Shown: positions 1,392 to 43,317 of the stretch, in pieces | How the letters are laid out: each line of letters begins with the position of its first letter | Position numbering within the stretch: the first letter of the stretch is position 1 | IMG/VR virus record: IMGVR_UViG_3300032242_002385 | Location: 1-44,167 of that record | DNA: 44,167 nt | Source: a virus | Reading direction: 5' to 3' (one strand) | The notes under the pieces: generated by a model | Told to the model about the DNA's origin: nothing | Seen by the model: only the letters and a program-made list of their open reading frames with translations | Databases searched by the model: none | Position numbers and translations under genes: made by a program

Positions 1392-1412
1392 ATTATACCA
1401 AGATAACGGTTT
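1392..1412 (-). promoter_or_regulatory. Promoter with extended -10 TGGTATAAT
   Basis: TATAAT at 1392-1397 with TGG at 1398-1400 forms a perfect extended -10. ATGACA, a 5/6 match to TTGACA, lies 16 bases further upstream and overlaps the last codons of the helicase C-terminal frame (ATG ACA TAA). It would start transcription of the 93-aa gene and the primase independently of the interrupted helicase upstream. Confidence 0.55.
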
Positions 1413-1746
1413 ATGTCATAGGATTTTCGTAAATTTCCTTTACAACACCCCGATTTAAATCCCAATCTAAATAAAAATCAAACTCAGTTCCGTGACGATT
1501 TTTACGGCTTACAATTTCCATAATATTAGTGTCTGGAGTTCTATGCACAGCCATAGCCATATCAGCATCATATTCAATAGCCTTTGACCATGCTACTTGT
1601 GATAGCAAAGGTGGGGAATCTTGATCTGATATATCATCCATTGTTGCTGCAGTAATATCAATAATTGGAATATTATTGCGTACTGCTAACAATTTAAAAT
1701 CACGAGAAATATTGCGATTACGCTCTACTTCTGATTTAGCTCCTTA
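1411..1746 (-). pseudogene. Helicase C-terminal part, same frame, beyond the in-frame TAA
   Basis: This is the distal RecA-like half of the DnaB-type helicase, in the same frame as the upstream part and separated from it only by the TAA at 1744-1746. Right after the stop come G-A-K-S-E-V-E-R-N and then a basic helix and the strand LAVRNNIPIIDI, matching the DnaB layout after Walker B (a loop, then KxLAxxxxxPVIxL). AVHR and SRKNRHG near the end fit the C-terminal arginine-rich nucleotide-contact region. The first available start in this frame is a TTG at 1692 with no ribosome-binding site nearby; an AAGGAG sequence overlaps the stop itself but has no start codon at a workable distance. Whether this part is made by readthrough, as a separate chain or not at all cannot be told here. 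Confidence 0.75.
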
Positions 1747-2637
1747 TGAATCATTAAACAGTTGATGATAATCAAGAATAACAATATCAGGTTTATGCTG
1801 GTCAATCTTTGCTTGTACGGTTTGTGGAGTGACTTGACCAGTACCTTCATTTGACACTAAGATAAATTGATTCTTGTTGGCAAACTTTTTTGAACCCCAA
1901 TCATCAAATGTGCTTATATCAATTTGACCTCTTGCAAAATCTGAAGCCTTAAACAAACCTGAACCTAGCATTGTATAAATACGGTCACGCATATTTTCTG
2001 GTGTCATTTCAAGAGATACAATCATAGGCTTAAAACCTTGTTCCCAAGCTTTACAGGCTAGATAAGAGGACATCCATGTCTTACCCCTACCTGCCCAACC
2101 AATCATGACTATAAGGTGTCCTGGAGCCATTCCTGTAGGGTATGCATAGTCAATAGCTTTGAAGCCTGTCATAATTCCTGGGCTTCCGCCCATTGCATCA
2201 GAACGGTTCTTAACTGCTTCAAAATGTTTTTCAGCCAATTTATAATCAGTTAAATCAACATCTCGAACATTGTTTGTAAGTCTACTTAATGTAGTTAATT
2301 CTTTTTGCATATCTGCAACTACTTTTGAAGATGCATTGTTCTTTAAACTTTGTCCAGATGACAACAAAAGATTTCTTAGTTTAGAAGCAAGGTATTCATT
2401 TTTTAATTGATCTAAATAGTATGCAGTCTCGCCTTTAACTGACTCTGGCTCAAAATCTTTAAAACGTTCTGTAAGAACTGAAACATCTGGAACAGCTTTA
2501 AACTTTAAATAATAAGACTTTAAGCCTTCCCACACATCTTTGTGGGAAACAAATACATCATCAATATTATCTGCAAGAACAACAGAAATATCTTTATTCT
2601 TGCATACTGCTGTAATGACTGCTGATTCAGTGTTCAT
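1744..2637 (-). CDS. DnaB-type replicative helicase, N-terminal part ending at in-frame TAA
   Basis: The N-terminal part (297 residues from ATG 2637) of a hexameric replicative helicase. Residues 1-125 look like the all-helical N-terminal domain. The RecA-like motor starts near residue 145, with Walker A in GWAGRGKT (K186, T187), the catalytic glutamate in SLEM (E210) and Walker B in DIVILDY (284-290). The frame stops at TAA 1744-1746, ten residues after Walker B begins, although the homologous sequence continues in frame to 1411. The full gene would be about 408 codons, a usual size for phage DnaB helicases. The ATG at 2637 overlaps the end of the preceding gene (shared AATGAACACTGA) and is preferred over a TTG at 2652. 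Truncated like this it lacks the conserved distal motor motifs and should not work as a helicase alone. Confidence 0.85.
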   Translation of the reverse strand: MNTESAVITAVCKNKDISVVLADNIDDVFVSHKDVWEGLKSYYLKFKAVPDVSVLTERFKDFEPESVKGETAYYLDQLKNEYLASKLRNLLLSSGQSLKNNASSKVVADMQKELTTLSRLTNNVRDVDLTDYKLAEKHFEAVKNRSDAMGGSPGIMTGFKAIDYAYPTGMAPGHLIVMIGWAGRGKTWMSSYLACKAWEQGFKPMIVSLEMTPENMRDRIYTMLGSGLFKASDFARGQIDISTFDDWGSKKFANKNQFILVSNEGTGQVTPQTVQAKIDQHKPDIVILDYHQLFNDS

Positions 2638-19800: not shown

Positions 19801-19949
19801 ACAGAACTAAACAGATTTGTTCCGTCTCCTGAAAAAGTAACGTATGGTTGATAAATTAAGTTGTAATTCCATTCAGCAGAAACCACTGGCTTTATCTGAA
19901 TTGCTTGTTGCTCAAAGTAATTTTTAACATTAGTATTATTACTAAGCAT
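13878..19949 (-). CDS. Large tail tip hub / adhesin, 2023 aa
   Basis: The second large tail protein after the tape measure, the usual place for the tail hub or central tip protein. The first about 1200 residues look like a baseplate-hub region, with segments such as FADAKQKTVYDILREAFLAY, GIMRFMHLNDIITKNQVIYS and FSKDITVNLFGNPLIQVGDIV, which fit the ring-forming and OB-like domains of siphovirus hub proteins, plus a concanavalin-like insert near residues 910-1080. The rest is a chain of Ig/fibronectin-like domains (TPTVVSDFSDD; PGITGNLTGTDFNYTVNNLD; GLTNGKQYSFNVQSHNSF). The last 120 residues are rich in Trp and Tyr (SWASWTWEWRFYHG) and could be a receptor-binding tip. The ATG at 19949 has CGGAGA upstream, and the gene follows the previous one with no gap. 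A specific enzyme activity is not apparent. Confidence 0.75.
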   Translation of the reverse strand: MLSNNTNVKNYFEQQAIQIKPVVSAEWNYNLIYQPYVTFSGDGTNLFSSVGGWKSSYPKVKIDTVATDPTLTDYYSTGVFLKNDTTRIAVNANSYNNSDRSNFEGNATIKLEKLPMYPSNPSSYKIVIYLKSADTNLIGVTAQASNAGAKAFGTTYATIDNFNWQKITLYVGADPHDSTTIPYNQLDLNLDFVNKTLEQTGYWGLLVGHIEVYSVTWFDVCYNNLWSTDAPFSFFRPGESYVRSGNNSFSDEDVARSVTLPSNNFTNVMPCSPIVYSPKTLFSSNANTIYKNGALSPISQYKYFVSELPGSTTSNGTAVSIGVAYEELFNVNKMVLKFNVSQSKPDGHLNLFAGDVLQSSIPVNNTMINDSGLLVLYYNGTTWSTNKWTWAEDSSSAMPRINNQGNITIAQKINKVVFTQTAAHIVDGYPNISAAAKSEFTRLQVIEISPRMELDLSQFVLMFDITKEIDNKSTPLPLSSISSNSAIIELSNVPLTIQPGNLPLSVFSTNANDAYSSPLKNLLVKNVKFYLSYYIPSARLTSESANSTRTIPAGVFYADTWDNQDIKVTKINCFDSMKFLQILPVNDYVSSGKSLIDIFTNVMDSSGFTDYDYNMLKTALTSNNQILTTSYFFADAKQKTVYDILREAFLAYQISGWIDEYGIMRFMHLNDIITKNQVIYSVKDSNVVVDTYNENIKTKIGKLIMRYRTPQIKKNVNLTNVNDKLVSAITQAPDIIWKQETEDLVPFYYLQDSILNFAQTDYTIPKNELLDLFYTTTINHQGYGFIEGEIVSVGDKEIILSSTKSGQSKAVYVSNDNDLNQELAKFSNKNLDPSTITYTPSGRFVNVQRGLFGTQSKSHIVMKTSNDFGSKLAFWSGNGSLLTPGQNLPIVNGGRIAVPINSTSISMVLPPVNEIDQNYNTYSVRFKLPDIKTEITGGLVVGYTYGGGYYTIGITSKNATTKNVSYILNVSSVNSLGNSTSLMNKDVTGIILNSFNNEPKVATYAQNDKGYISLKFVNKSGGLVVYINDRRITNADVTSINGGLGTQFGFYTTSSASLNSNSLLSEIYACQSVIDNQTNYHFQQTEYLDAIVSGKRLTEKFFMVQSRPAFIGLNLYDVQLSLTPSLGAEPFKVMYSLYYKKSTAASAATDHIVVYDKALAYSTVVSSGFRAKFALANNSRYAIWTQTTSDYSKVVNAQFMILSRNMIVLTDQQTLERVLNQQNINEVVEIQSDWIQSEKSANSILGVVARASNAFSKDITVNLFGNPLIQVGDIVSLDHTLKNIKNLTFFVQSVKQSYDKGLLTTLTMNEIGYKGTGNTSPNQNYLSYSPSLTPSNLLGIVNNNGSNTPYGSTSGGDVALITGGDGWSNSNKPTVFFDEFQASQVTVTSSSALTCVVPPHSAGWANVTVIFNGITETTFNYNSWLYQEDKVVLNPITPTVVSDFSDDASNGMTNVIAIDWTVGSSLENAYNFTVDGGIVPASGKLIDEGLGFGTKYVGSGFVPGKTYNFSFTPVDKQNGVQIGSGPVATLQYVCDSINQGGSQGGSNTVPILLTTPGITGNLTGTDFNYTVNNLDSNWIGFPQSYSYQWYSNKNENYAPIQGRTTYSAVLDSSYVGSKIYCHIIATNIIGQGSGNSEIIDVNSSPATGGGTTTPGLPIAPNIQPVPILTNQGSTSDFTFYINKDLVSNPGINSYQITSYPAITNNLSNEVFNFQISSLPVGPNNSYAITIVGLTNGKQYSFNVQSHNSFGLSQSSNIKANPSSTTDVVTNLAIQSGSNVLGTWTGYAAAQAYNVSYQSITNPTKPASSFSISKTGLGWSHIRNNVTFILSTNGINFNDSTFNDSLEFAPGEQVNLTVTPAIAGVQQTSTDLNGNYYTVPNNTFNVPTGKAPRVHSQDFHWYLPSATVKHETGGSFYWGPDATLGPFGSWASWTWEWRFYHGTSTSGTLINTGEKVPLQYDAYDPAVSMNMQFDPSFYVGTSYVAGPCYLEVRMKIIGTDGLVYYGNSGGAQSVNSAGQKGSFN

Positions 19950-20561
19950 TTAAATCTCCGTAAATTCTATCTTTAGGTTTACTAAATCGTATCCCGTGTT
20001 TGCTTTTGATACTCTTCTTTTTACTATATCATAGGTAAAGTTTGTCATAAATGCATTATATACACCGTTGTTGGCATTTGTTTGAGAATGTATTGAATCT
20101 GTATATGGAGAAATTGCGTTTGTTGGCACAGTACCAGTGCTTATTAAATCTGTTCCTGTTGAATTTTTATATATATTTTCTTGTGCAAATATAAGCTTTA
20201 CCCATACAGGTGAGAATGCATTAATTTCATAAAAGGCTTTTATCCAAGCCCCGCCATGTGCGTTACCTGAATCTCCCAAACTCATAGATTGTTCTTTTTG
20301 ATTAGGATTATAATCAACTAAATTAGAATCAATTGTTGGAAAATCATGCCAATCAGTTGTAATTTTAAATTTGCGAGCAATAACATATTGTCTTAAAGTT
20401 CCATCTGCCATTCTTTGTTGTTGTTGAATCAAATCATAAGATATTGAAATTGGGTTGCGATTATGATCGCTAAGTCTATACCAAGTTCCCGTGCCAGTAG
20501 ATGGATTATAATTTAAAGATACTTGAACGCCAGTTGGGATTGGTCCAGCGATTGAGGACAT
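19950..20561 (-). CDS. Distal-tail-like protein, 203 aa
   Basis: 203 residues, beta-rich, encoded between the tape measure and the tail hub, where siphoviruses carry the distal tail (Dit-like) protein. It starts MSSIAGPIPTGVQVSLNYNP and contains ITTDWHDFPTIDSNLVDYNP and a C-terminal strand ending LKIEFTEI, a typical closing beta pair. Its start overlaps the tape measure stop by one base (TAATG). The structural role is assigned from position and composition rather than a recognised motif. Confidence 0.6.
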   Translation of the reverse strand: MSSIAGPIPTGVQVSLNYNPSTGTGTWYRLSDHNRNPISISYDLIQQQQRMADGTLRQYVIARKFKITTDWHDFPTIDSNLVDYNPNQKEQSMSLGDSGNAHGGAWIKAFYEINAFSPVWVKLIFAQENIYKNSTGTDLISTGTVPTNAISPYTDSIHSQTNANNGVYNAFMTNFTYDIVKRRVSKANTGYDLVNLKIEFTEI

Positions 20562-23500
20562 TATACTCTCACACTCCTTGTTGTTTGGGTCATAGCGTTT
20601 TGACGTTTGATGGTATCAATAACAACCTTAGCAATCTGATTAGCATCAGCATTAGTTTCTGCATTTACAGTAATATTATACGTATTACCCATTGTACCAC
20701 CTTGTGATACATTTAGTCCAGTTTGAGACATTTGCGGGAATGAAGGATTAAATGATCTATTATTAATAGCACTCATAAATCCTACACCGTAACTAGATAC
20801 GCTAGAAGCATTCATTACATATTCGCCATTTGATAGCATGGCTTGTATTGAATCAGACATATTAGATCCTGGTCCAGATACTAGACCTCCAAAGGCTTTC
20901 TTTACTGGAGCAGATGTTGACGATGGAGTAATACCTTCCATTTGCACTTTACCGTTATCATCTAAAACTTTAAATGTATAAACTTTTCCGTCTTGTGTAA
21001 TTTGAAAATAAGAATCTTTAGGTAAATGTGATTGTTGAGCTAATCTTTTAATATTATCTCTTGAGGTAACTCCTGGAAGTTGAAGCGGGTTAAAATCATT
21101 ATAATCAGAAGGGGAAACACCGTAGTTATTTCTGCTGCTTGGCTTTAAATTAGGAAAACGCTTATATATGTCTTCAGGGGAACCAAATTGCATAGGAGTT
21201 TTTGGATCTAAAGGATTGTTAATAAGTAATTGACCAGTATTTTTATCCGTTGCTATTGTATTTGCTGTTAAAGCACCTGATACTCCTGTTGCTGCAGTAG
21301 TTGCAGCACTTTGTGCTGCGGTTTGTGCTTTGTTAGCAAGATCTTGTTTATCTGCAATTTGTTGTGCTAAAGTATCTGATTGCATTTGAAGTTTATTTAC
21401 ATTACTTTGATTTGAATAATCTGTTTGATTTGTTATCATTTCTTGTTGTAACATTGCAGATTGCAAGAAATCTCCGCCAGCTCTTGCAGTTCTAATTTTA
21501 TTTTGAAGATCCGCTTGCTTTTGCATGTATTGTTGTTGTCTTTGCAACTCAGATGTTATATTTTGTTCTGTTTTTAATTGAGCATCTATAACTTTTTTAG
21601 CTTTTTCTAAATCTTTTATTTGACTATTTAAATCAGCTGATATTGCTGCGGTTTGTTTAGCTGTAGCTGTATTTGCATCATTTTTTTTCTTATTTGCTGC
21701 TTGCATATCTGTTTCTAATTTTTTAGTTGCAGCACTTGGTGTAGTTTCAGATTTATCTGGCTTTACATTATAGTATCCTGGCATATCAGTTCCTGTTGTA
21801 TTAATTTTAAGACCTAATGCCTGTGCTTTTGTAAAATCTGATATTTGTCTAGTTGTAAACCCTTGTTGTTTTAATAGGGATACATTGTTTGCACCTTGCC
21901 AATCTCCTGCTGATTGTAAAGAAGCAATTAAACCGTCAACATATCTTTGGGATGTTAATGCTGATGAGCCAATTGCATCAATAATTGATTTATAGGTATC
22001 CCATGAAGTTGTGTTTATTGCAATATTTGATATTTGACCTACAAAATCTTTAAAAGCTTGTGTATCTGGCTTCATTGATGCAAGAGTTGATTTAATTGCT
22101 TGCATTTGATTTGCAACGCCGACTGAAGAACCTGTGGCATCATGACCGCTCATGCCCAAAATTAATTGTAACATATGATCTGCTTGTGATTTATCTATGC
22201 CATTAATTGCCATTTGTGTTTTAACAAATTGTTCTGCAATGTCTTTTGCTGCGCCAGCATTTCCAGTATCTTTTAATTTTTCTATTACAAGTGAAAGCGG
22301 ATTATCTTTAGGCAATCCTTTAACCATTTCTGAAAAATTCTTTAATTGTTGACCAGTATAATTAAGTCCTGGAATTAAACTGCTATTTGCTCCAGAATCT
22401 TTTGAATATACTGCTTGCTGAAACTGTAACATTGTATGTGTTGTATCTGCTACTTGACCACCAAAAAATTGAACGGCATCAGCACTAGATTTAAAAGTTG
22501 CTGCAGCTTGTGCTTTATGTTCTTTTTCAATATCCATTAAATGTTTAATTCCAGAATATGCAAATCCTGCACCTGCTGCTAAAGCTATTAATTCTGGTTG
22601 TCCAGTCATAGCAGCCATTCCACCCCATTGAGCTGCTGTGCTTAATTCATTTCCAACCCCTGGTATTTTCTTTAACATTGGGGTTGACATTGTTGCAACT
22701 GTCATTGCTCCCACAGCTAAACCAGTTCTTCCTGCAAATCCTAATTTATTATTAAATAAACGATTTTTAATTCCGCCCATTAAACCTGAAGATTGTTGTG
22801 CACCTTCTTGTGATGCTTCCGCTAAAGCAGCACCTGCTGCTTCTGCTTCTGGTATTGTTGATTTAACTCCGTCAGCCCAACCTAATCCAAACCATTTACC
22901 TAAAGTCATCATAACTTTAGATGGGGATGCAATTTCTGCTGCTGTTTTAATTGCAACAATTGTTTCTTCAACAAGCATTGCTGATGCTTTTGCTGCTTCA
23001 GATTTTTTACTTATAACTCCGTCTATAAATCCTTGTGCAACCTGCTGTCCTAAAATTTTATATTCATCGGTTTCTGTTTTCTTTTGTTTTTCAAGATCAG
23101 CCATTCTATCTTGTGCACCCTGCAATTGTGCTTTTCTAATTGCAATTTGTGTATGTTTAATTGCTTCAACATCTTGAACTTCTGCTTCTTGTAAAATTTT
23201 AAGTTGTTGTTTTAATGGTTTTTCAAAACTTGGATCTACTGGTTTATTTGAATTTGCAATAGATGAAACATTATAATTTCTTCTTCCAGTTCCAGCGTCA
23301 TAATTTGGAGCAACAGATTGATATGCTTTAAGTGCCAAAGGTTTTGCTTTATCCGAATCAATATACTTTGAAAGCTGTAACTGTTCTATTTCAGAAAGTC
23401 TTCCTTGTGATCTAGCATTTGTTACTCCACTTGCACCTGCAAATATTGACAAAGATTTATCTGCACTAAACGTTCTTCTTCCACCAGTTATTTCTGGATG

Positions 23501-26251
23501 CAAGAATGGGCTATTTGCTCCAGGTATTTCGTTTGCTGTATCTTTTACATCTTGAACAACTTTATTTAATACTTTTTGATATAGCTCTTGTTCTGCTTTT
23601 GTTACAGGTTGTACTCCAGCTTTAAATCCAGCAATTTCTTCTGGTTTAATACCTGCAACTGAATCAGATGCTTCTTTAATAATTTTATCCATATATGCTT
23701 TTTTAGCTTTTAATGCAGCGGAATCATCTGGAGCAATATCTTTAGAAAATTCTGAAATTGTTGACATTGCTTGATTTTCGGGTCTTCTTAAAGCATACAG
23801 TTCTGATGCTCTAAATACTTTATCATCTTCTTGAGTTCTTGAACTCATTGATCTATGGGATAGATCTGTTTGGTTTTCAAGTTGATGTTGAGCAGATGAA
23901 CTTAAATTAAGATTAACATTTCCAAGTTTCTTTAGTTCATCTATTGCTTCACGAATTATTTGAGGTGCTTTATCAGCGTCCCCGCTTATTTCTGAAACCA
24001 TTAAAGCTGAACCACTTAACTGTGTATCAGATGTACTATAGCTTCCGTGTGGAGCAAGCCATTCACCTTCTCCAGTTTCTGGATTCATTTTAAAACGTGG
24101 AGTGCCCTTATTAAATCCTGGCAATTGCCCTTTCATCATTGCTTTAATAAATGGAAGATTTTTTCTTGTTGTTTCTGCATCAATTACAGCTTCACCTGGT
24201 GCAAGCATTGCTGGGAATGTATCTGTTTTTCCATCTCCAGAACCTGGAACAAGACCTCCAGCAAATCCTGGCAAACGCAATTGTTCATAAACTCTAGCTT
24301 CTGTTGTAGCAGCTGCACCAACGGTATTTAAAAGTCCTTGTATTCCTGTACCAGCATTTAATGAAGTTACCATTCCATCTATACTTGTAGTTAAATCTTT
24401 AATTGCCTTTTCAAGTAAACCCACGGAACTAACGTTTTCTAAAATATTTGTATTAAATAAAGCTGAGGCATTTTGTGCTGCAATCATTTCTGGTGTAAGC
24501 ATTTGACCTAATGTTTTACCACCAGTTGCAAGTTGTTTTAAATTAAATGCACCTTTAATTAAATACCCAATAAAGTTGCCCATTAAACCTGTTAACATAA
24601 TAATTGGTCCCGCTAAAGCAACACCAATTGCTAAACCACCCATTACTGTTTTTATTGGTCCTGGCAAACCATTAAATAATTTTGCAACCTTATTTCCAAA
24701 ATCTAAAATCTTTGTTCCAAATTTCATAATAGCGTCTCCAACTGGATAAAGATCTGCTTTAAATGTTGCCATAGCTCTTTGAAATTGTGCCGTTGTTGAT
24801 TCTGTTGCCTGTTTCATTTCTTGATTTGCTAAACCAGCTAATTGTGCTGAAGTAGCACCTGCAACTTTTAATGCATTTTGTGTTTGACTTCCTTGTTTGC
24901 CAAAATTTTCAAGAAGTGCAGAAACACGTGCAAATTGAAATTTACCAAATAATTTTTCAATAAGTTGTTCTTTAACCAATGGTGATAATTTTGCAAGACC
25001 CATTTGTAAATCCTCAATCATTTGTACAGGATTACCCTGTGTACTATTTTTAATTGAAGTTAAATTAATCCCGTATTGTGCCCATTCTTTTGATGCTGCT
25101 GCTGTTGGGGCAATCATAGAAGCAACTGCAGATTTAACTGCGTTAGCTGCTTGTGCTGCTGGAATACCAGCTTCACGCATTGCAACAAGCATAACTGCTG
25201 TATCTTTATATGTACCACCAAGTTGTTGCATAATTGGACCAACACGTGGAATAGCTTCTGTCATATCTCCTAAAGTCATTGTTGTTTGCTTTTGAATATC
25301 TGACAAAAAGTTAACTGCATCAGCTAATTGATTTGTGCTTACTTTATAAACATTTTGAAGTGCAACAACTGTATTTGTTGCTGCTGTTGCATCTACAGCT
25401 CCTAGTTTTGATAAACGCTGTGTTTGATATGTTGTATCTAAAAGGTCTTTGCCTTGTCTTCCCATGGCAGCAAAATTAGCTGCAACTTTAACTGTTTCAT
25501 TTTGAGCAATACCCATTGTTTGTGCAACATTTTTACCTAGATTTAAAACTTGATTAGAAATTGCATTAATTTCTGTTTGGCTTGGAGGGGTAAGACCTTC
25601 ACCGTATAGTCTTTGCAATCTTGTAAGTTCTGTATTTACATCTTTAAATGCTGAAACTGCTTGGCTACCAAATAACAATAATGGCATAGACATACCAACT
25701 GTTAATTGACGACCTGCCCACTGAGTATTTTTACCCCAGTTGATGAGTGATTGCGAACCTTTATTTACTGCAATAGCATAAAGATTTGCTTCATTTGTAG
25801 CAATCCTTGTTGCATTAGCAACCTTATTAATTTGAGTTGGAGTATATACATTAAGTATACCTTGCTTTGTTGGATCATTTACAACAATAGAATTTTGAAG
25901 TTTTGTTTGTTCAACCGCCAAAGCCCTCATTTGAGTTACAGCTTGTGAAGACTTCATTCTTATGATGTTGTAGTAATCTGTAAGCTTTAACTTTCCTGCT
26001 TCTAAAGCTTGACCAAACTTAACGGTTTCATCTTGCATTTTAACTGTCTGTTGTGTAAACTGACCAGTTGACAGCATTGTCTGCTTAAATGAAGCAGAGA
26101 TAGAATTTAAATCTTTTGCTAGTGTGGAATTAACACCTACACCAGCTAAACTTTTTTGAAGTAATTCAACTTGTGTTTGAAGGGTTTTAATCTGACTATT
26201 TACGGAGCTAAAATCGCCAAGGGCGACAACATTTAATTCTATACGTGCCAT
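20561..26251 (-). CDS. Tape measure protein
   Basis: A 1896-residue tape measure that sets tail length and is ejected with the DNA. It has a long helical, Gln/Ala-rich N-terminal part (QIKTLQTQVELLQKSLAGVG), then a TP901-like tape measure core with a conserved pattern (FKDVNTELTRLQRLYGEG; MREAGIPAAQAANAVKSAVA), hydrophobic segments near residues 540-570 (VMGGLAIGVALAGPIIMLTG) and 1190-1260, and coiled-coil parts near 1590-1680. Two related Gly-rich units, FAGGLVPGSGDGKTDTFPAM and FGGLVSGPGSNMSDSIQAML, each followed by a similar Gly-Glu motif, occur near residues 670 and 1800. At about 1.5 angstrom per residue the tail would be near 280 nm. A GGGGGTGA site precedes the ATG at 26251. No peptidase or lysozyme domain was recognised. 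Confidence 0.92.
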   Translation of the reverse strand: MARIELNVVALGDFSSVNSQIKTLQTQVELLQKSLAGVGVNSTLAKDLNSISASFKQTMLSTGQFTQQTVKMQDETVKFGQALEAGKLKLTDYYNIIRMKSSQAVTQMRALAVEQTKLQNSIVVNDPTKQGILNVYTPTQINKVANATRIATNEANLYAIAVNKGSQSLINWGKNTQWAGRQLTVGMSMPLLLFGSQAVSAFKDVNTELTRLQRLYGEGLTPPSQTEINAISNQVLNLGKNVAQTMGIAQNETVKVAANFAAMGRQGKDLLDTTYQTQRLSKLGAVDATAATNTVVALQNVYKVSTNQLADAVNFLSDIQKQTTMTLGDMTEAIPRVGPIMQQLGGTYKDTAVMLVAMREAGIPAAQAANAVKSAVASMIAPTAAASKEWAQYGINLTSIKNSTQGNPVQMIEDLQMGLAKLSPLVKEQLIEKLFGKFQFARVSALLENFGKQGSQTQNALKVAGATSAQLAGLANQEMKQATESTTAQFQRAMATFKADLYPVGDAIMKFGTKILDFGNKVAKLFNGLPGPIKTVMGGLAIGVALAGPIIMLTGLMGNFIGYLIKGAFNLKQLATGGKTLGQMLTPEMIAAQNASALFNTNILENVSSVGLLEKAIKDLTTSIDGMVTSLNAGTGIQGLLNTVGAAATTEARVYEQLRLPGFAGGLVPGSGDGKTDTFPAMLAPGEAVIDAETTRKNLPFIKAMMKGQLPGFNKGTPRFKMNPETGEGEWLAPHGSYSTSDTQLSGSALMVSEISGDADKAPQIIREAIDELKKLGNVNLNLSSSAQHQLENQTDLSHRSMSSRTQEDDKVFRASELYALRRPENQAMSTISEFSKDIAPDDSAALKAKKAYMDKIIKEASDSVAGIKPEEIAGFKAGVQPVTKAEQELYQKVLNKVVQDVKDTANEIPGANSPFLHPEITGGRRTFSADKSLSIFAGASGVTNARSQGRLSEIEQLQLSKYIDSDKAKPLALKAYQSVAPNYDAGTGRRNYNVSSIANSNKPVDPSFEKPLKQQLKILQEAEVQDVEAIKHTQIAIRKAQLQGAQDRMADLEKQKKTETDEYKILGQQVAQGFIDGVISKKSEAAKASAMLVEETIVAIKTAAEIASPSKVMMTLGKWFGLGWADGVKSTIPEAEAAGAALAEASQEGAQQSSGLMGGIKNRLFNNKLGFAGRTGLAVGAMTVATMSTPMLKKIPGVGNELSTAAQWGGMAAMTGQPELIALAAGAGFAYSGIKHLMDIEKEHKAQAAATFKSSADAVQFFGGQVADTTHTMLQFQQAVYSKDSGANSSLIPGLNYTGQQLKNFSEMVKGLPKDNPLSLVIEKLKDTGNAGAAKDIAEQFVKTQMAINGIDKSQADHMLQLILGMSGHDATGSSVGVANQMQAIKSTLASMKPDTQAFKDFVGQISNIAINTTSWDTYKSIIDAIGSSALTSQRYVDGLIASLQSAGDWQGANNVSLLKQQGFTTRQISDFTKAQALGLKINTTGTDMPGYYNVKPDKSETTPSAATKKLETDMQAANKKKNDANTATAKQTAAISADLNSQIKDLEKAKKVIDAQLKTEQNITSELQRQQQYMQKQADLQNKIRTARAGGDFLQSAMLQQEMITNQTDYSNQSNVNKLQMQSDTLAQQIADKQDLANKAQTAAQSAATTAATGVSGALTANTIATDKNTGQLLINNPLDPKTPMQFGSPEDIYKRFPNLKPSSRNNYGVSPSDYNDFNPLQLPGVTSRDNIKRLAQQSHLPKDSYFQITQDGKVYTFKVLDDNGKVQMEGITPSSTSAPVKKAFGGLVSGPGSNMSDSIQAMLSNGEYVMNASSVSSYGVGFMSAINNRSFNPSFPQMSQTGLNVSQGGTMGNTYNITVNAETNADANQIAKVVIDTIKRQNAMTQTTRSVRV

Positions 26252-26271: not shown

Positions 26272-26888
26272 TTACATTTCCATAAAGCCAAGACCTTCGT
26301 TTTGACCAAATCCTTCTTTGGAAGCAACCATTGGATTATTTAGATCTGAAACATCTCTAACTTCTTCTTCTTTTTGTTCATCTAAATCAACGCCTTGTAG
26401 TGCTGCCATAAACTTCATATTTCTTTCTTCTTTTTCTCTTGATGCATTTAATACTGCATTAAGCTCGTCAATAGAAAGATTTGATTCTAATTCATCAAAA
26501 TTTTTCCAATGACCTAAAAGAAATACTTCGGACTCTAAGGAGCGTAGATCTAGTTCGTCCCAACTAGAGCTGCTCCCAGAAGGTTTGGGTCTGTAAGCTT
26601 TAATCCTCCACAGATTTCCAAAATTTTCATCATTGTAGGAATTTCAATAAGATCTTCAAACTTGTCTTTATCTGTAGAAAGTTCTGGCTTAATTGTTTTC
26701 AAACAATGCATTGCTGCTTCAATAAAAATTTCCATGGCTAGGTCTTCAGATGCATCATCTGGAAGCTTTTCCATAGTCTTGATTATTTCCATAAATTTTC
26801 TTAGCGGTTTAATTGGTAGGGGCTTTAAAACAATTGCCTCACCATTTGATAGTTCAATCTCGATAATATCGTATACTGCTGTTGCCAC
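26272..26888 (-). CDS. Tail assembly chaperone, -1 frameshift fusion (205 aa)
   Basis: The long product of programmed -1 frameshifting, equivalent to gpGT of lambda. The first 102 residues are shared with the short chaperone; after slippage at CCCAAAC the frame shifts back by one base and gives a further 103 residues, starting PSGSSSSWDELDLRSLESEV and ending GFGQNEGLGFMEM before TAA at 26272-26274. The extension is acidic and helical (REKEERNMKFMAALQG; DEQKEEEVRD), as usual for the T part that binds the tape measure. Nothing else occupies 26272-26549, and this frame is open throughout, which supports the assignment. It lies directly before the tape measure gene. Confidence 0.85.
26549..26568 (-). 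promoter_or_regulatory. Hairpin downstream of the slippery site
   Basis: On the minus strand TCTAGTT and AACTAGA form a perfect 7-bp stem with a GGGACG loop, starting 14 bases after the slippery heptamer and containing the zero-frame stop. It may stimulate frameshifting. Confidence 0.5.
26550..26888 (-). CDS. Tail assembly chaperone, zero-frame product (112 aa)
   Basis: A 112-residue protein of the tail assembly chaperone type (gpG-like), which coats and folds the tape measure before the tail tube assembles. It begins MATAVYDIIEIELSNGEAIV and has a Pro-Leu-Pro-Ile turn, then helices (RKFMEIIKTMEK; AMEIFIEAAMHCLKTI) and ends GGLKLTDPNLLGAALVGTN. The start is a GTG (26886-26888) with AGGAGG 4 bases upstream; the overlapping ATG is in a different frame and does not encode a long product. 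It follows the major tail gene after a terminator-like hairpin and has its own TGGTATAAT box. Size and position fit the family well. Confidence 0.85.
   Translation of the reverse strand: MATAVYDIIEIELSNGEAIVLKPLPIKPLRKFMEIIKTMEKLPDDASEDLAMEIFIEAAMHCLKTIKPELSTDKDKFEDLIEIPTMMKILEICGGLKLTDPNLLGAALVGTN
26583..26589 (-). promoter_or_regulatory. Slippery heptamer CCCAAAC for -1 frameshifting
   Basis: Read in the zero frame as C CCA AAC, this fits the X XXY YYZ rule exactly, with tRNAs able to re-pair on CCC and AAA. It lies at codons 100-102 of the chaperone, ten codons before its stop, the usual place in long-tailed phages. Confidence 0.8.
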
Positions 26889-32170: not shown

Positions 32171-32683
32171 TTAGTTATTTTTAGTTAAGCTATTAACACC
32201 GAGGAAAGTGCCTTGCCATAGACTTGTTTTTTGGATTTTTGTATCCTCCATTGACCCGCTAAGATCACTGGACTTCTTAACTGCAGTTGCAGACTCAAAT
32301 CCCTTTAGGGAGTGGTCAAGATATTCGATCTTTCCATACATATCTGTAACTGACTTATTTAGTGCTTCATATTTTTCTGCCAAATCTGCAATAGACTTGG
32401 TAATTGATGCTGTGGTATCTTCAACCATCTTAGCAACTTCTGAAACTGAAGCATTGCTTGTTGATAAATTCTTTTCAATAGATTCTGAGAAGAAGGTCTT
32501 TAGGTCATCTACCATCTTTGTGAAATCAAGGGTATCCTCAACCTCTGAAATAGCTACAGCCTTTTCAATTGTCTCTCCTGCTAAATCTGATACCTCATTA
32601 ACAGTTTCTGCTGTTGCTGAAGCTACGACATCAACGGACTTTTCAATTACTTCTTCTGTTGTTGTATTTGTCTCTTCTGTCAT
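32171..32683 (-). CDS. Nested in-frame scaffold protein (internal start in protease gene)
   Basis: A 170-residue product predicted from an internal ATG (32681-32683) in the same frame as the protease. The ATG has a perfect GGAGGT 6 bases upstream, much stronger than the site for the full gene. The product begins MTEETNTTTEEVIEKSVDVV and is acidic and helical with coiled-coil-like segments (MVEDTTASITKSIADLAEKY, EALNKSVTDMYGKIEYLDHS) and a C-terminal tail rich in Lys/Ser. That is typical of capsid scaffolds, which help the coat assemble and are then cut up by the protease. Scaffolds nested in protease genes are known (lambda C/Nu3). This call is inferred from the start site and composition. 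Confidence 0.65.
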   Translation of the reverse strand: MTEETNTTTEEVIEKSVDVVASATAETVNEVSDLAGETIEKAVAISEVEDTLDFTKMVDDLKTFFSESIEKNLSTSNASVSEVAKMVEDTTASITKSIADLAEKYEALNKSVTDMYGKIEYLDHSLKGFESATAVKKSSDLSGSMEDTKIQKTSLWQGTFLGVNSLTKNN

Positions 32684-33574
32684 TTCATTACCTCCTTCAT
32701 TTTTCTTAATCGCACTAGTGACATCAATAGGCGAAACCTTTTTTGCTTTGTTTTGATCTGGATAAAGATTAATTGCTGTTGAACTATCAACAACATTTCC
32801 TGGAGCTGCAGTTTCTGTTGCTGCGTGTGTTGGTCCAGGTGCGTCGTCTTTTGTTAGATATGAATCTAAAACTTTTTGAATTGATTCAAATTTTTCTACT
32901 TCTGCTTGCTCAATCCAACCAATGTTTGACATTGTTGTTCCACATGCAACACAATCTTTTGCAATTTCAGAACTTGTAGAAACAATTTCATCTGATTCAC
33001 ACCAAAAAACATTTTCTGTTGGTGTTTCTGCTGCAATGCCTTTATATACTAAACCTGTATCTGTTTTTTGAATTGAAAAAATATTTGCTAGCGGATTTGC
33101 TGGGGAATCTACAAGACTCAACTCATGCAAATCATAATTGTGAATAACTCTACGTTCATCTGAATTATTGTCCGCTTTTTCCATTTTAGCATCTATAATA
33201 TTTCCGCCAATGGAAAATCCTGTTAGTGTACCGTCTAAAACTTTTTCCCAAGTATCCTGTGCACCTTTTGAAATATATGCAGTTACATATACTCCATTAT
33301 ATTTATTGCCAGATTCTTTATCAAAAAATGTATCTTCTTTAAAATTAACCATCTTGCCAACAGCTGTTGGTTGATGCATCTCACGGATATTACCTCTAAA
33401 GTTTTCAAATGCTTTTCTATTTGCTTCAGCAGTAACAATGTCCCCATGACGGTCTAGATTGTCGAGGGACGCAAATCCTGATACGGTTCTTTTTTCTCTG
33501 TTTACCTTGGCAATGGGAAAAGCGAGTGTCATTGAAGATTCGCTGTTTTGCCAATATGTTTTTTTAATATCCAT
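32171..33574 (-). CDS. Prohead protease with C-terminal scaffold domain
   Basis: From ATG 33574 it is 467 residues. Residues 1-165 are the HK97-type prohead protease (peptidase U35/S78-like): FASLDNLDRHGDIVTAEA, the catalytic His in REMHQP (H67) and the Ser in LTGFSIGG (S121), followed by HELSLVDSPANP. The middle is a low-complexity linker with a Cys pair (CVACG); the last 170 residues are helical and acidic and act as scaffold. The protease matures the head by cutting scaffold and coat arms. A TTG at 33619 could add 15 hydrophobic residues but lacks a ribosome site, so ATG 33574 is preferred with moderate certainty. It precedes the capsid gene, the usual order. Confidence 0.85.
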   Translation of the reverse strand: MDIKKTYWQNSESSMTLAFPIAKVNREKRTVSGFASLDNLDRHGDIVTAEANRKAFENFRGNIREMHQPTAVGKMVNFKEDTFFDKESGNKYNGVYVTAYISKGAQDTWEKVLDGTLTGFSIGGNIIDAKMEKADNNSDERRVIHNYDLHELSLVDSPANPLANIFSIQKTDTGLVYKGIAAETPTENVFWCESDEIVSTSSEIAKDCVACGTTMSNIGWIEQAEVEKFESIQKVLDSYLTKDDAPGPTHAATETAAPGNVVDSSTAINLYPDQNKAKKVSPIDVTSAIKKNEGGNEMTEETNTTTEEVIEKSVDVVASATAETVNEVSDLAGETIEKAVAISEVEDTLDFTKMVDDLKTFFSESIEKNLSTSNASVSEVAKMVEDTTASITKSIADLAEKYEALNKSVTDMYGKIEYLDHSLKGFESATAVKKSSDLSGSMEDTKIQKTSLWQGTFLGVNSLTKNN

Positions 33575-33615
33575 ATGTAAGTAAATAATAGCAATAGTTA
33601 TGAATAATTCATAAT

Positions 33616-33966
33616 TCAATCAACAGACTTTATTACACCGCTGTTGATTTCTATAACCTTTTTTACATCCACCCCCTCTGGTTTGTAGACTTTTACTTCT
33701 GGAAATTGATCTGGGGTTCCTGGGTTACCGTCATTTATGTTATTTACGTATGGGGTTTGAATATGGGAATCTGGCAAAACATTGGGAGAAGAAGAGGAGC
33801 TATGTGAGGCTAAACCACCTGTTATAAAGCCCATAACGGGGTATAGCAAGCCTGTAATACTCTTTTGAAAACCTGTGGCTGCCCACATTCCATATGAGCT
33901 AATTAGGGCTATACCAAGCTGTTTTGCCTCACCTATATTAAATTTAAAATGATTTTTTAAACTCAC
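33616..33966 (-). CDS. Small membrane protein, possible second holin
   Basis: 116 residues. Residues about 14-52 are largely hydrophobic in two segments (QLGIALISSYGMWAATGF; SITGLLYPVMGFITGGLA) separated by a few polar residues; the rest is a Ser/Pro/Asn-rich tail ending in VKKVIEINSGVIKSVD. The gene overlaps the endolysin stop by 4 bases (ATGA), so the two are probably co-translated. A holin role is suggested by the endolysin partner and two hydrophobic segments, but a structural role in the head block is equally possible. Confidence 0.55.
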   Translation of the reverse strand: MSLKNHFKFNIGEAKQLGIALISSYGMWAATGFQKSITGLLYPVMGFITGGLASHSSSSSPNVLPDSHIQTPYVNNINDGNPGTPDQFPEVKVYKPEGVDVKKVIEINSGVIKSVD

Positions 33967-34817
33967 AACGCCCCCTTAAGATTATCGTAAACTATTTGTG
34001 GAATTGCTCCGCCTTTTACTATAATTCCAAGTTTTTGATCAAATTTTACAAGTCCTGCTTTTGTTTGAGTATTCATTGTTCCAGTAGCATATTTGGCTAG
34101 TAACAAGCCTTTTTTAACAAGGGCTTTTTGAATTGTTAATACTGCATCATTAGTCTGTCCGATAACAAAAGAATTTTGAGATGATGGAAATGGAGGTGCA
34201 ATAAATACCGTAGGGCTTGGTGATGGCGTGGCAGTTGCTGAACCAGTTGTTCCATTATGCAACATTCCTGTTGCGCCAGCTACTGCTGCTCCAGTTCCTC
34301 CAACTACTGCTGTTGCTTTTTTACTTGTAGAAACTCCAGCTGTTGGCTTAACAATAACTGGATATCTTGGTCTTATTACGGCAATAACAAATAAATAATT
34401 TCTATGTACTCTCCAACAACCTTCTTGTGTTGGATCATTTGGATTGCCAGTATTAAAAGCAATTGTTGTAAATCCTCCAGGACTTGCTGCTTCACATAAT
34501 TCTACGTGATCAGCTACCCCGTCTCCATTCCAGTCGTACATGACCAAATCGCCCGTTTGCATCTGCATTTTATTAACAACCATACCTTGCATTTGAAACC
34601 AATGTAGGGCTGTAGGATTAAAAGAAAAACCTTTAGGAGTTTGTGCAGCAATTAAATGTGATAGTCCAACTTGTGCAAAACACCAACTGATTCCCATTGC
34701 ACAATATGGGGCGTTAGGTACTCCATACCAAATCCCGTATGGATTTTCATTTGAAGCACCTTCGTGAAAACCTATTTGAGTTCTGGCAACATTTAAAACA
34801 TCTAATGCCGTTGCCAT
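33963..34817 (-). CDS. Endolysin: CHAP domain plus C-terminal peptidoglycan-binding domain
   Basis: 284 residues. The N-terminal 130 residues form a CHAP-type amidase/endopeptidase, with the catalytic Cys in NAPYCAMGISWCF (C39) and His in DGVADHVELCE (H104), and the conserved GDLVMYDWNG strand. A low-complexity Thr/Ala/Gly-rich linker (about 135-210) follows, then a peptidoglycan-binding-1-like repeat (NDAVLTIQKALVKKGLLLAK and TGTMNTQTKAGLVKFDQKLG). It cleaves peptide bonds in the host cell wall. No signal peptide is seen, so release needs a holin. It lies between portal and prohead protease genes, far from the holin-like gene at 4045-4224; a virion-associated role is also possible. Confidence 0.85.
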   Translation of the reverse strand: MATALDVLNVARTQIGFHEGASNENPYGIWYGVPNAPYCAMGISWCFAQVGLSHLIAAQTPKGFSFNPTALHWFQMQGMVVNKMQMQTGDLVMYDWNGDGVADHVELCEAASPGGFTTIAFNTGNPNDPTQEGCWRVHRNYLFVIAVIRPRYPVIVKPTAGVSTSKKATAVVGGTGAAVAGATGMLHNGTTGSATATPSPSPTVFIAPPFPSSQNSFVIGQTNDAVLTIQKALVKKGLLLAKYATGTMNTQTKAGLVKFDQKLGIIVKGGAIPQIVYDNLKGAL

Positions 34818-34820
34818 TTT

Positions 34821-36413
34821 TTAATCCTGTGCTCTGCCTTCGCCTTGAGCGTTTCTTGCTTGACCCATTTTGTCATTTGCTCCTAAAGTTCTTTCTTGAT
34901 CTCTAGTTTTATTTCCACTAAAGTCTGATGCAGCGTCTTGCATAGCTTTAGGATTAAGAACAAGAACTTTATCTCCGCCAGAAATTGGAGCAAGTCCTTT
35001 ACGAGCACGAACTTCATTTGGAAGAAGCACTTGATCTTTAAGATAACGATCATCAATTCTTGATTGAGTTTCTTCATCTGTAAGTGCAAGTTCATTAAAT
35101 CTAAGAACAAAAGCATCCGTAAACTGTTTAATAATAACATTAATTTTTACTTCTAATTCTTCTTGTCTTGGACGACATACCTGTTCTTTAAATGTTTTAT
35201 CTGCATCTTTAGCATTTGCCAAAGATACGCCTTGTGGCATACCAATCTTAGAAATAGGTACACGGTGTGCAATAAGAATACGATCTCTATTTTCTACAGC
35301 ATAGTTTTTAAATGAAGAATCTTGAACTCCCGCTTCAATTGGTTCCATATTGAATTCAACACGTGATTGTTCTCCGTCTGAAGGAAGTGGAATATACAGG
35401 GTTCTATGGTTTCTTCCTTTTAATCCTGTTTGGAAAAATTCTAAAAGTCTACGCTCAGAATCAGCAGTAAGTTTTGCACCTTTTACAGTAATAATATATC
35501 GTGGTACAGCTTTATTTTCAAAATAATCTAAATTATATCTTTGTGCAAACTCATCTCCAGCTAAAGCATTTTTGGCAGACATAATGTCTGGAATCCCATA
35601 ATATGTATTAGATGGTGTAAAAATTTTAAAGTGAATTACTTCGTTAGGTTGAGGGTCAGTACCAATTTGATCTGGGGTATCGGTATCACCAAAATTTCTA
35701 AAGAATGTGTAGCGATTATAAACAACTTGAACAAAGCCATCACGGTGACGACGAATACGCATGGTTGTTGTAGGAATATGACCTATGTAACCAATCTTAC
35801 CAGTTGATGTACGACCAACTTCAAGATATGCATTGCCAGTTGATTCTAGGTCTATATAAACCTTTTTCATGTTTTCAATAAATGAATCATCAGAATTTAA
35901 TGATTCTAAATAATCACGTAATTCTACTTTTGCATCTTCAATTTTTGAACGAATTTTATCAAGCTTTTTTGGGTTATCCATGGCATCTTCAACTTTTTTA
36001 GTTGTAGCCCATGTCTCTTCAAATTTATATCCTAGGCCAACAACGTTTGCTGCCTTAGCATTTACCGCTGAATGGTGATAAGGTGAAACATCATATAGTT
36101 GTGCTAAATAGAGCATGTTATATGGAGGTTGTACTATTTGAAATAATGAATATCCTGTTAAATCAAGTGGGTCAAGCTTTTTAGATTTAGCATCGCCTTT
36201 ACCTGTAAATGCTTTTTGCATTCTATCAACCTTACGGCGGAAATTAGGATTTAGTCCTTCAGACTTTTTGATATCTTCCCATGAGACGTTAAATGGATCT
36301 TCATACGTCTTTTCTTGTTTTTCAAATAATTGAAAATCTTCAGGGGTATAAACTCTTACATTACCCTCATCATCATCATTATCCATAACCGTAATCTTAG
36401 GTTGTTCAATCAT
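34821..36413 (-). CDS. Portal protein
   Basis: 530 residues, close to the PBSX-type portal family: an acidic N-terminus, then LAQLYDVSPYHHSAVNAKAA (clip/stem lead), VYIDLESTGNAYLEVGRTST, GHIPTTTMRIRRHRDGFVQV, YGIPDIMSAKNALAGDEFAQ, RYIITVKGAKLTADSERRLL and HRVPISKIGMPQGVSLANAK near residue 400, all typical of the dodecameric portal through which DNA enters the head. The C-terminus is charged and disordered-looking. The ATG at 36413 overlaps the previous gene by 4 bases. It is followed by the endolysin rather than the protease, an insertion in the usual order. Confidence 0.9.
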   Translation of the reverse strand: MIEQPKITVMDNDDDEGNVRVYTPEDFQLFEKQEKTYEDPFNVSWEDIKKSEGLNPNFRRKVDRMQKAFTGKGDAKSKKLDPLDLTGYSLFQIVQPPYNMLYLAQLYDVSPYHHSAVNAKAANVVGLGYKFEETWATTKKVEDAMDNPKKLDKIRSKIEDAKVELRDYLESLNSDDSFIENMKKVYIDLESTGNAYLEVGRTSTGKIGYIGHIPTTTMRIRRHRDGFVQVVYNRYTFFRNFGDTDTPDQIGTDPQPNEVIHFKIFTPSNTYYGIPDIMSAKNALAGDEFAQRYNLDYFENKAVPRYIITVKGAKLTADSERRLLEFFQTGLKGRNHRTLYIPLPSDGEQSRVEFNMEPIEAGVQDSSFKNYAVENRDRILIAHRVPISKIGMPQGVSLANAKDADKTFKEQVCRPRQEELEVKINVIIKQFTDAFVLRFNELALTDEETQSRIDDRYLKDQVLLPNEVRARKGLAPISGGDKVLVLNPKAMQDAASDFSGNKTRDQERTLGANDKMGQARNAQGEGRAQD

Positions 36414-36807: not shown

Positions 36808-38763
36808 TTATTTAAAATTTGGACTTGTGTATGACAAAATTGCTGATCCACCATTGAAATCGGTGCCATTGCCATTAAACTCTGCTAATGAACCCATATA
36901 ATTTGAGCCTAAACCTATCTGTCCAGTATTTGATGTTAAATAAGATAAGTATCTATTTTGGGCATCTGTTTGAGAAAATGCGTTTTGATAGACAGAAAAG
37001 AATCCATATGTTGCCAAAGAGTACTGATTTAATGATGAAGTTCCTCCAAAATATACTGGAGATGTATTTGTGTCTGGATAAACACATACAAAATGATAGA
37101 TTTCACCTTTGCTTAACACCTTAGATTGGTTTGTATAGTCTAAACCGTTTATGTAAACTGCTGCAAAACCATTCTGAGTAACACTTCCTGTTTGACCCAC
37201 AAAGTATATGTAGGCATCATATCCCACGGTGTCCAATATATATTGATTATATGAATCTGTTACATCATCATATCTAAACCAAAAATCTAATGTTTTAAAT
37301 CCTACGCTTTGAGTTCCCGCTTGAAGTACCGCAATAGAATTTTTATCATCTACATTATCTAACTTTATACCAAAATTTGTAGATCTTGACATAATATTAA
37401 ACATGTTTTTTCTAATTGCATATGTGTCTCCCGTAAAACTACCTTGTCTTGGCATTAATGTAAAAGCACCTAAATCAGAATATATTGACAAATCATTATA
37501 AACCGCTATAAGTAAATTATCTAGTCTTGGTTGATTAATGAATGATGAATCTGATGTAGATATAGTAACTTTTACCAAAATGTTTGGATAAGTTATCAAA
37601 GAGCTATCTGCAAATTGAACTGCTGGATAATTATTTTTAACCTGTTTCCAAGTAGCACCGCTGTCATATGATATGTCTACTGAAACAAAATCTGTTGTTG
37701 AAACAACGCTATTATTTGTATATCCCGAATCCCAACTAATTCTAGCACCAGCTATTTTGGTTGAAGCTGAAGATGGAACCTGATATATCCAAGTTCCAGT
37801 TATTTGTTGTGAAGTTGCGGTTCTTTGGATTGATATTCCAGTATTATCTGCTTGAAGATTATTAAAAACACCTTCTTGATAATCTAAAGGTTTTCCAAAT
37901 TCTTTTTTAAAATTAAACATGTCTTCAGAATCTTTAATGTCAAAGAAATAGCCACTGGTTTCTTTTACATAAGATTGTGGCTTTGAATCATTAGAAGCCC
38001 ATACCATGTGGTTCTTTATAATATTTTCAGACAACACATAATCATAAAAAGCTAGGTCATTTATAATAAAATGATCTTGTGTTGCTGAAGGTCCTATTTG
38101 ATAATTTACATTCATAGAACTTGTATTATTTAAAGCAAATGTAAAAGATTGGGGGATTACAGTAGAACTTCCTCCCATAGCATTTACAGATATATTAATC
38201 TTTCTACCCGTAAAAGAAGCAAATACATGCATTTGAGAATCCCACTTGATTATCTGCTTGTATGAGCTATATGAAGAATCTAGACTAAATACTTCAAAAT
38301 ATATTCTATCTCCAGATATATAAATCTTTCCAGATACTGATGTTCCTGAATATATTGTCAATATGTTATGTATGCTTGTTGGAGCTGAATCTAAAGATAA
38401 CCAAAATTCTATTCCAAATGAAAGATTTTCTGTTCCATTATAAAACATCCTGTATTTATTAGGTCTATTTCTTATGGTTAATATTGTATTATCCGTTACC
38501 TTGCATCCCGCAAAATCTGGAACAACATTAGATTGTGTTGTTAAAGGCAATACATCAGAAAATATTGCAGAAGATCCACCTGACACAAATGCTTGGTTAT
38601 TTATTAATGTTTCATCATATAGACGGTCATACAATACCTGATTATATTCAAAACCTGGCTCATCATAATTAATATCAGCATCATCATAAGTAGATGCTAC
38701 ATATTCATTTAATCTCCAATAACCGAGTGGTGCGTCAGCAAGAACTCTATACTTATAGGACAT
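36808..38763 (-). CDS. LamG/concanavalin-like virion adhesin
   Basis: 651 residues. The N-terminus ADAPLGYWRLNE is the hallmark start of LamG-type (concanavalin A-like) domains in phage surface proteins. The first domain (residues about 1-250) contains SFGIEFWLSLDSAPTSIHNI and ends with a YWR-type closing pattern. A middle beta-sandwich (about 310-420, TWIYQVPSSASTKIAGARIS) and a second LamG-like domain (about 440-640, FKTLDFWFRYDDVTDSYNQY) follow. LamG domains bind glycans, so it may decorate the virion and attach to the host surface. AAGGAGG upstream supports the ATG at 38763. Confidence 0.8.
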   Translation of the reverse strand: MSYKYRVLADAPLGYWRLNEYVASTYDDADINYDEPGFEYNQVLYDRLYDETLINNQAFVSGGSSAIFSDVLPLTTQSNVVPDFAGCKVTDNTILTIRNRPNKYRMFYNGTENLSFGIEFWLSLDSAPTSIHNILTIYSGTSVSGKIYISGDRIYFEVFSLDSSYSSYKQIIKWDSQMHVFASFTGRKINISVNAMGGSSTVIPQSFTFALNNTSSMNVNYQIGPSATQDHFIINDLAFYDYVLSENIIKNHMVWASNDSKPQSYVKETSGYFFDIKDSEDMFNFKKEFGKPLDYQEGVFNNLQADNTGISIQRTATSQQITGTWIYQVPSSASTKIAGARISWDSGYTNNSVVSTTDFVSVDISYDSGATWKQVKNNYPAVQFADSSLITYPNILVKVTISTSDSSFINQPRLDNLLIAVYNDLSIYSDLGAFTLMPRQGSFTGDTYAIRKNMFNIMSRSTNFGIKLDNVDDKNSIAVLQAGTQSVGFKTLDFWFRYDDVTDSYNQYILDTVGYDAYIYFVGQTGSVTQNGFAAVYINGLDYTNQSKVLSKGEIYHFVCVYPDTNTSPVYFGGTSSLNQYSLATYGFFSVYQNAFSQTDAQNRYLSYLTSNTGQIGLGSNYMGSLAEFNGNGTDFNGGSAILSYTSPNFK

Positions 38764-38784
38764 CTTATAGAGCCCTCCTTTTTC

Positions 38785-42630: not shown

Positions 42631-42633
42631 GTT

Positions 42634-43317
42634 TTAATCTCCTAGTAATATATCCGATGCTTTGAACGGATAGAGTGTTGTTTTTTTGGTTGTTACTTCT
42701 CCTGACATAATTCTACCACTAAATGTCGAAATTTTAGAAACTGGTCCAAAAAATGCCAAATACCCGCCTGAATCTAACCAAAAACCAGATCTTTTTAGGG
42801 GCGAACGCCATACATACTCTGGAAAGCTTACTGATTGAATTATACCATCAATAGTTATTAAAAGCCTAAATGGATTAGCTAGGAAAATTTGTGTTCCCTG
42901 ATATGTTAATCTAAACCTTGTTGCATTTCCAGTAAAATAGTTTGCTATATCATCAAGCGGGGTGATTGTAAAATCAAAATTAGGACCTGTTAGATTTCCG
43001 CTAACATTTACAGTTCCTGTAAAGTTATTTATACCTGATAATGTTGGAACTATGGATGAATCTATATATAGACCTGAGTTATCTCCAACTATTCCCCCGC
43101 CAGATCTTATTTTTAAAATAATATTTTGAGTATAAGAATTATATGACAAAGGATCAGTTGCCGTTACAAGACCTGTAGGCCCTGCTGGACCCGTAGGACC
43201 ACTAGCTGCTGGACTTGTATTTGATGCCCATCCATTACCGTCCCATGTCCAACTATAACTACCAAAAGAGTATGTATCGTTAATCTGTGGGCTTAATGGA
43301 AAATCTATAATTGCCAT
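42634..43317 (-). CDS. Virion surface protein with collagen-like segment, 227 aa
   Basis: 227 residues. Starts MAIIDFPLSPQINDTYSFGS, with a YSWTWDGNGW motif; then a collagen-like GPTGPAGPTG segment (residues about 40-50), a beta part (GGGIVGDNSGLYIDSSIVPT, LSGINNFTGTVNVSGNLTG) and a final small beta domain ending YPFKASDILLGD. Short Gly-X-Y segments in phage proteins form triple-helix trimers. The final motif and the Trp-Asp-Gly start are shared with many T4-like cyanophage structural proteins (recollection). GTAGGAGA lies upstream of the ATG. Confidence 0.7.
   Translation of the reverse strand: MAIIDFPLSPQINDTYSFGSYSWTWDGNGWASNTSPAASGPTGPAGPTGLVTATDPLSYNSYTQNIILKIRSGGGIVGDNSGLYIDSSIVPTLSGINNFTGTVNVSGNLTGPNFDFTITPLDDIANYFTGNATRFRLTYQGTQIFLANPFRLLITIDGIIQSVSFPEYVWRSPLKRSGFWLDSGGYLAFFGPVSKISTFSGRIMSGEVTTKKTTLYPFKASDILLGD

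What the first reader, a model, noticed from the sequence alone, without database searches (positions are those of the whole stretch)
1411..2637. Replicative helicase interrupted by an in-frame TAA just after Walker B
The two parts are in the same frame and together give a complete DnaB-type helicase. The stop (1744-1746) is followed by homologous sequence with no frame change, and TAA is used as a true stop elsewhere (fibre, 59-aa gene). The TAA overlaps an AAGGAG motif (TAAGGAGC), but the first usable start codon is 50 bases on. It could be readthrough, two interacting chains, a recent nonsense mutation or an assembly error. A helicase cut between Walker B and the distal motor motifs would normally be dead, so this needs an explanation.
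Basis: partly seen in the sequence, partly recalled or inferred. Interest (0 to 1): 0.75.

Follow-up and report, generated by a model that had tools for sequence, protein, structure and literature searches.

The report
Lone stop in phage helicase gene
A normal phage DNA-unwinding enzyme gene carries one stray stop codon that none of its 163 retrieved relatives has, with no sign of decay around it, so it is most simply a very recent single-letter mutation or an error in a metagenome-assembled sequence, not a new mechanism.

Summary
On the minus strand, 2637..1411, a 408-codon DnaB-type helicase gene carries an in-frame TAA at codon 298 (1746-1744), with homologous sequence on both sides and no frame change. 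The record is a 44,167-base linear IMG/VR fragment. All 163 retrieved relative loci (77 distinct genes) have a sense codon there and no stop anywhere in the gene. In the nearest relatives the codon is Ser (TCT or TCA); TAA is one base from TCA. The window protein has no residue unique to it on either side of the stop and keeps all 52 downstream columns that are invariant in relatives, so nothing has decayed. Among about 307,000 codons in 160 related loci plus the window, this was the only in-frame stop with homology on both sides. The AAGGAG overlap looks incidental: the nearest in-frame start is 51 bases on. TAA ends 22 of 35 window genes, 12 relatives checked carry one helicase gene each, and no sampled tRNA reads TAA. 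Best reading: a private, very recent nonsense change or a consensus error; not programmed readthrough, a split helicase or recoding. Only the original reads can separate the first two.

The parts
1411..2637 (-). DnaB-type replicative helicase gene, 408 codons, interrupted at codon 298
   Evidence: Pfam DnaB_C 9.5e-25; PHROG 19 DnaB-like replicative helicase 7.2e-69; synteny with cultured Streptomyces phages
1744..1746 (-). In-frame TAA at codon 298, private to this contig
   Evidence: Sense codon in all 163 retrieved relative loci, 77 distinct genes; only such stop in about 307,000 surveyed codons
1747..2637 (-). 5' part: N-terminal region, Walker A (GWAGRGKT) and Walker B (IVILDY)
1411..1743 (-). 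3' part: helix and strands completing the RecA-like motor, including NRHG; no usable start of its own near the stop
   Evidence: DnaB_C profile positions 155-247; start codon scan; low-confidence model
1739..1746 (-). TAAGGAGC: AAGGAG motif overlapping the stop; judged incidental
   Evidence: No in-frame start within 50 bases; AAGGAG occurs 12 times on this strand; GGAGC encodes the Gly-Ala also present in uninterrupted relatives

Best explanation
An ordinary DnaB-type helicase gene of a Stanwilliamsviridae-like phage contig carries one private stop. It is either a consensus or sequencing error in the metagenome assembly (about 55% in my judgement) or a very recent, probably lethal or rare, nonsense mutation in a real genome (about 40%). 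One substitution from a serine TCA codon, which several near relatives use here, gives TAA. Translated as written, the message would end after residue 297, just past Walker B, losing the following helix and the remaining strands of the motor; such a protein should not be an active helicase (inferred, not shown). Nothing in the sequence supports rescue.
For: All 163 retrieved relative loci (77 distinct genes) have a sense codon at this position and no stop in the gene. The near clade has TCT or TCA, and TCA is one base from TAA. The window has 0 residues unseen in relatives on either side of the stop, and keeps 52 of 52 invariant downstream columns and 120 of 120 upstream. Divergence from the nearest relative L005 is about equal before and after the stop: nucleotide 0.146 and 0.138, nonsynonymous codons 7.1% and 7.5%. 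The other window genes that could be checked against relatives are uninterrupted. One such event in 306,899 codons corresponds to about 2e-5 unselected substitutions per base, a rate that consensus error alone could reach (own knowledge). The record is a linear IMG/VR fragment.
Against: No reads could be mapped, so error and real mutation are not separated. No other contig of the same phage at near-identity was available (the tool warns that near-identical records may be left out). The nearest relative on the tree has TCT, which is two changes from TAA, so a TCA intermediate must be assumed if the immediate ancestor had TCT.
Confidence: 0.94

Rival explanations
1. Programmed or suppressor-driven readthrough: TAA is read as an amino acid by a phage or host ochre-suppressor tRNA or through its context, giving some full-length helicase.
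For: The downstream part is fully conserved and in frame. Relatives with contigs of 80-112 kb carry tRNA arrays, and the window lacks that part of the genome.
Against: No relative has a stop here, so no conserved device exists. No tRNA with anticodon TTA was found in the arrays read and none in the window. Conservation downstream is equally expected for a very recent change.
Confidence: 0.03
2. Two-chain helicase: the message makes a 297-residue chain, and reinitiation (AAGGAG at the stop) makes a C-terminal chain; the two assemble.
For: AAGGAG overlaps the stop; the break falls in a loop after Walker B that varies among relatives.
Against: The first in-frame start is a TTG 51 bases on and the first ATG 102 bases on, too far from that motif; the TTG start would drop the segment GAKSEVERNRNISRDFK, which includes residues invariant in relatives, E305, R306, N307, N309, I310, S311, F314 and K315. 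AAGGAG is common on this strand, 12 copies.
Confidence: 0.01
3. The phage reads TAA as an amino acid throughout (recoded genome).
For: One in-frame TAA inside a conserved gene.
Against: 22 of 35 window genes end in TAA. Coding density under table 11 is 96.5%, and no other gene is seen to be interrupted. A published survey of recoded phages that I consulted describes TAG and TGA recoding and does not mention TAA (PMC11210395).
Confidence: 0.005
4. The helicase is a genuine pseudogene in a living lineage whose function was taken over by another helicase.
For: The gene is broken as written.
Against: No decay on either side of the stop; 12 relatives carry one DnaB_C gene each, including contigs over 100 kb; the neighbouring primase and other genes are intact.
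Confidence: 0.015

Closest known systems
DnaB-like replicative helicases of Stanwilliamsviridae (Streptomyces phages TunaTartare, Paradiddles)
   Same: 62-63% protein identity over the whole gene; same order: metallophosphoesterase, small genes, helicase, primase
   Different: Those genes are uninterrupted (AGT or AAC at this codon)
Helicase genes of related IMG/VR contigs (L001-L080)
   Same: 75-92% identity, full length, same neighbours
   Different: None has a stop
Ordinary private nonsense change or metagenome consensus error
   Same: Single position, one contig, no decay, the rest of the contig normal
   Different: Nothing that I could test; reads are not available

Membership tests
DnaB-type replicative helicase | RecA-like DnaB_C domain with Walker A, Walker B and distal motifs | tested here: met
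   DnaB_C 9.5e-25 over profile positions 1-246 of 255, reading through the stop; DnaB structures match with best E 2.3e-16
DnaB-type replicative helicase | One uninterrupted reading frame | tested here: not met
   TAA at codon 298; met in all 163 relative loci
Programmed stop-codon readthrough | Stop conserved at the same site in relatives | tested here: not met
   0 of 163 relative loci
Programmed stop-codon readthrough | Full-length product detected | not testable with these tools
   Needs proteomics
Ochre suppression or recoding | tRNA reading TAA | tested here: inconclusive
   None in the window or in the relatives' tRNA arrays read; the rest of this phage's genome is not in the record
Ochre suppression or recoding | TAA avoided as a terminator, or repeated in frame | tested here: not met
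   TAA ends 22 of 35 genes; only one in-frame TAA with homology on both sides
Split helicase with reinitiation | Start codon close to the stop with a ribosome-binding site | tested here: not met
   Nearest in-frame start is TTG, 51 bases after the stop

The most novel reading that the evidence does not exclude
The phage, or its host, carries an ochre-suppressor tRNA outside this fragment, and the helicase is made only by readthrough, which would throttle DNA replication.
Probability: 0.02. Interest if true: 0.7.

Novelty: not a real feature. Interest (0 to 1): 0.08.

Why it matters
It matters little. It shows that a lone in-frame stop in a metagenome-derived phage contig should be checked against relatives before a mechanism is proposed. 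If readthrough were real, it would be an unusual way to control a phage replication fork.

Tried and rejected
A first base-rate survey reported 384 in-frame stops, but many came from spurious antisense query frames; it was discarded and redone with coding-strand queries supported by several relatives. Exact-pattern scans for the stop-bearing sequence in viral contigs found nothing. A second relatives scan with an alignment mostly returned the same contigs. A scan of cellular genomes gave one relative, uninterrupted. The predicted structure is of low confidence (mean pLDDT 54) and is used only to note that the stop lies in the loop between a strand and a helix, which the DnaB alignments also indicate. 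A paper search for premature stops in viral contigs gave nothing directly useful. An ARAGORN call with a four-base anticodon in L050 is probably spurious.

Full report
What is there. The gene lies on the minus strand from 2637 to 1411. Read in frame it gives 297 codons, a TAA at 1746-1744, 110 further codons, and a final TAA at 1413-1411. Each part matches DnaB_C on its own and together they cover nearly the whole domain. PHROG 19, a DnaB-like replicative helicase family, matches at 7.2e-69. The surroundings are a normal phage replication block: a metallophosphoesterase, small genes, the helicase, a small gene and a primase, in the same order as in the cultured Streptomyces phages TunaTartare and Paradiddles of the Stanwilliamsviridae. 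The record is a 44,167-base linear virus record from IMG/VR, so very likely a fragment assembled from a metagenome.

Relatives. A scan of viral contigs gave 80 loci at 75-92% protein identity. At codon 298 all have a sense codon: TCT, TCA, AAT, CAA, CAG, AAG and a few others. With further loci, one relative in a metagenome-assembled cyanobacterial bin and two cultured phages, the count is 163 loci holding 77 distinct genes, none with a stop anywhere in the gene; many of the 163 are second fetches of the same contigs, so the 77 distinct genes are the fair number. The position is variable in amino acid and lies in the loop after Walker B. In the near clade the codon is Ser, TCT or TCA. TAA is one substitution from TCA. 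The closest relative on a tree built without this codon has TCT.

Age of the change. The window has no residue that is not seen in a relative, before or after the stop. It keeps all 52 downstream and all 120 upstream columns that are invariant in relatives. Divergence from L005 is about the same on both sides. A gene that had been dead for any length of time should have collected private changes; this one has not. The change is therefore very recent or not in the organism at all.

How unusual. Among 160 related loci plus the window, about 307,000 codons in genes supported by several relatives, this was the only in-frame stop with homology on both sides. About 4.8% of single substitutions in window genes would be nonsense, so one event corresponds to roughly 2e-5 unselected substitutions per base, with a wide interval of 6e-7 to 1.3e-4. 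A consensus error rate of that order is plausible (own knowledge). A scan over many windows would be expected to meet such cases.

Rescue mechanisms. Reinitiation: the nearest in-frame start is a TTG 51 bases after the stop and the first ATG is 102 bases after it; AAGGAG occurs 12 times on this strand. Its GGAGC part encodes the Gly-Ala that uninterrupted relatives also have. Recoding: TAA ends 22 of 35 genes and coding density is 96.5% under the standard code; the one paper consulted on recoded phages describes TAG and TGA recoding (PMC11210395). Suppression: no tRNA in the window, and in the relatives' tRNA arrays that were read no anticodon that reads TAA; the tRNA-Leu with anticodon TAA reads TTA, not TAA. 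The rest of this phage's genome is not held, so suppression is not formally excluded. A second helicase: 12 relatives, several over 100 kb, have one DnaB_C gene each.

Verdict. I take it to be a consensus error or a private, recent nonsense change, in that order of likelihood, and rate it low. 'Not a real feature' in the novelty section means that no functional device is there, not that the TAA is missing from the record. Shown: the stop, its absence from relatives, the lack of decay, the lack of a nearby start. Inferred: that the truncated product is inactive, and the split between error and mutation.

Noticed in passing
window 26272-26888, minus strand: A 112-aa frame (PHROG 10504) followed in the -1 frame by a second frame ending just before the tape measure gene (20561-26251): looks like a lambda G/GT-type tail assembly chaperone made by programmed frameshift.
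   Followed up: partly
window 33963-34817, minus strand: An endolysin-like gene sits between the portal gene (34821-36413) and the head maturation protease gene (32171-33619), on the same strand.
   Followed up: no
window 19947-19952, 34815-34823, 38761-38787, 42628-42636, minus strand: Four neighbouring gene pairs are in the same frame, separated by one TAA followed at once or soon by ATG; ordinary adjacent genes as far as seen.
   Followed up: no
L050:3277-3370: ARAGORN reports a tRNA-like sequence with a four-base anticodon (ctaa); probably spurious.
   Followed up: no
L192: A 109,918-base contig binned as an uncultured cyanobacterium carries a 79% identical helicase; probably a phage contig binned with a bacterium.
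   Followed up: no
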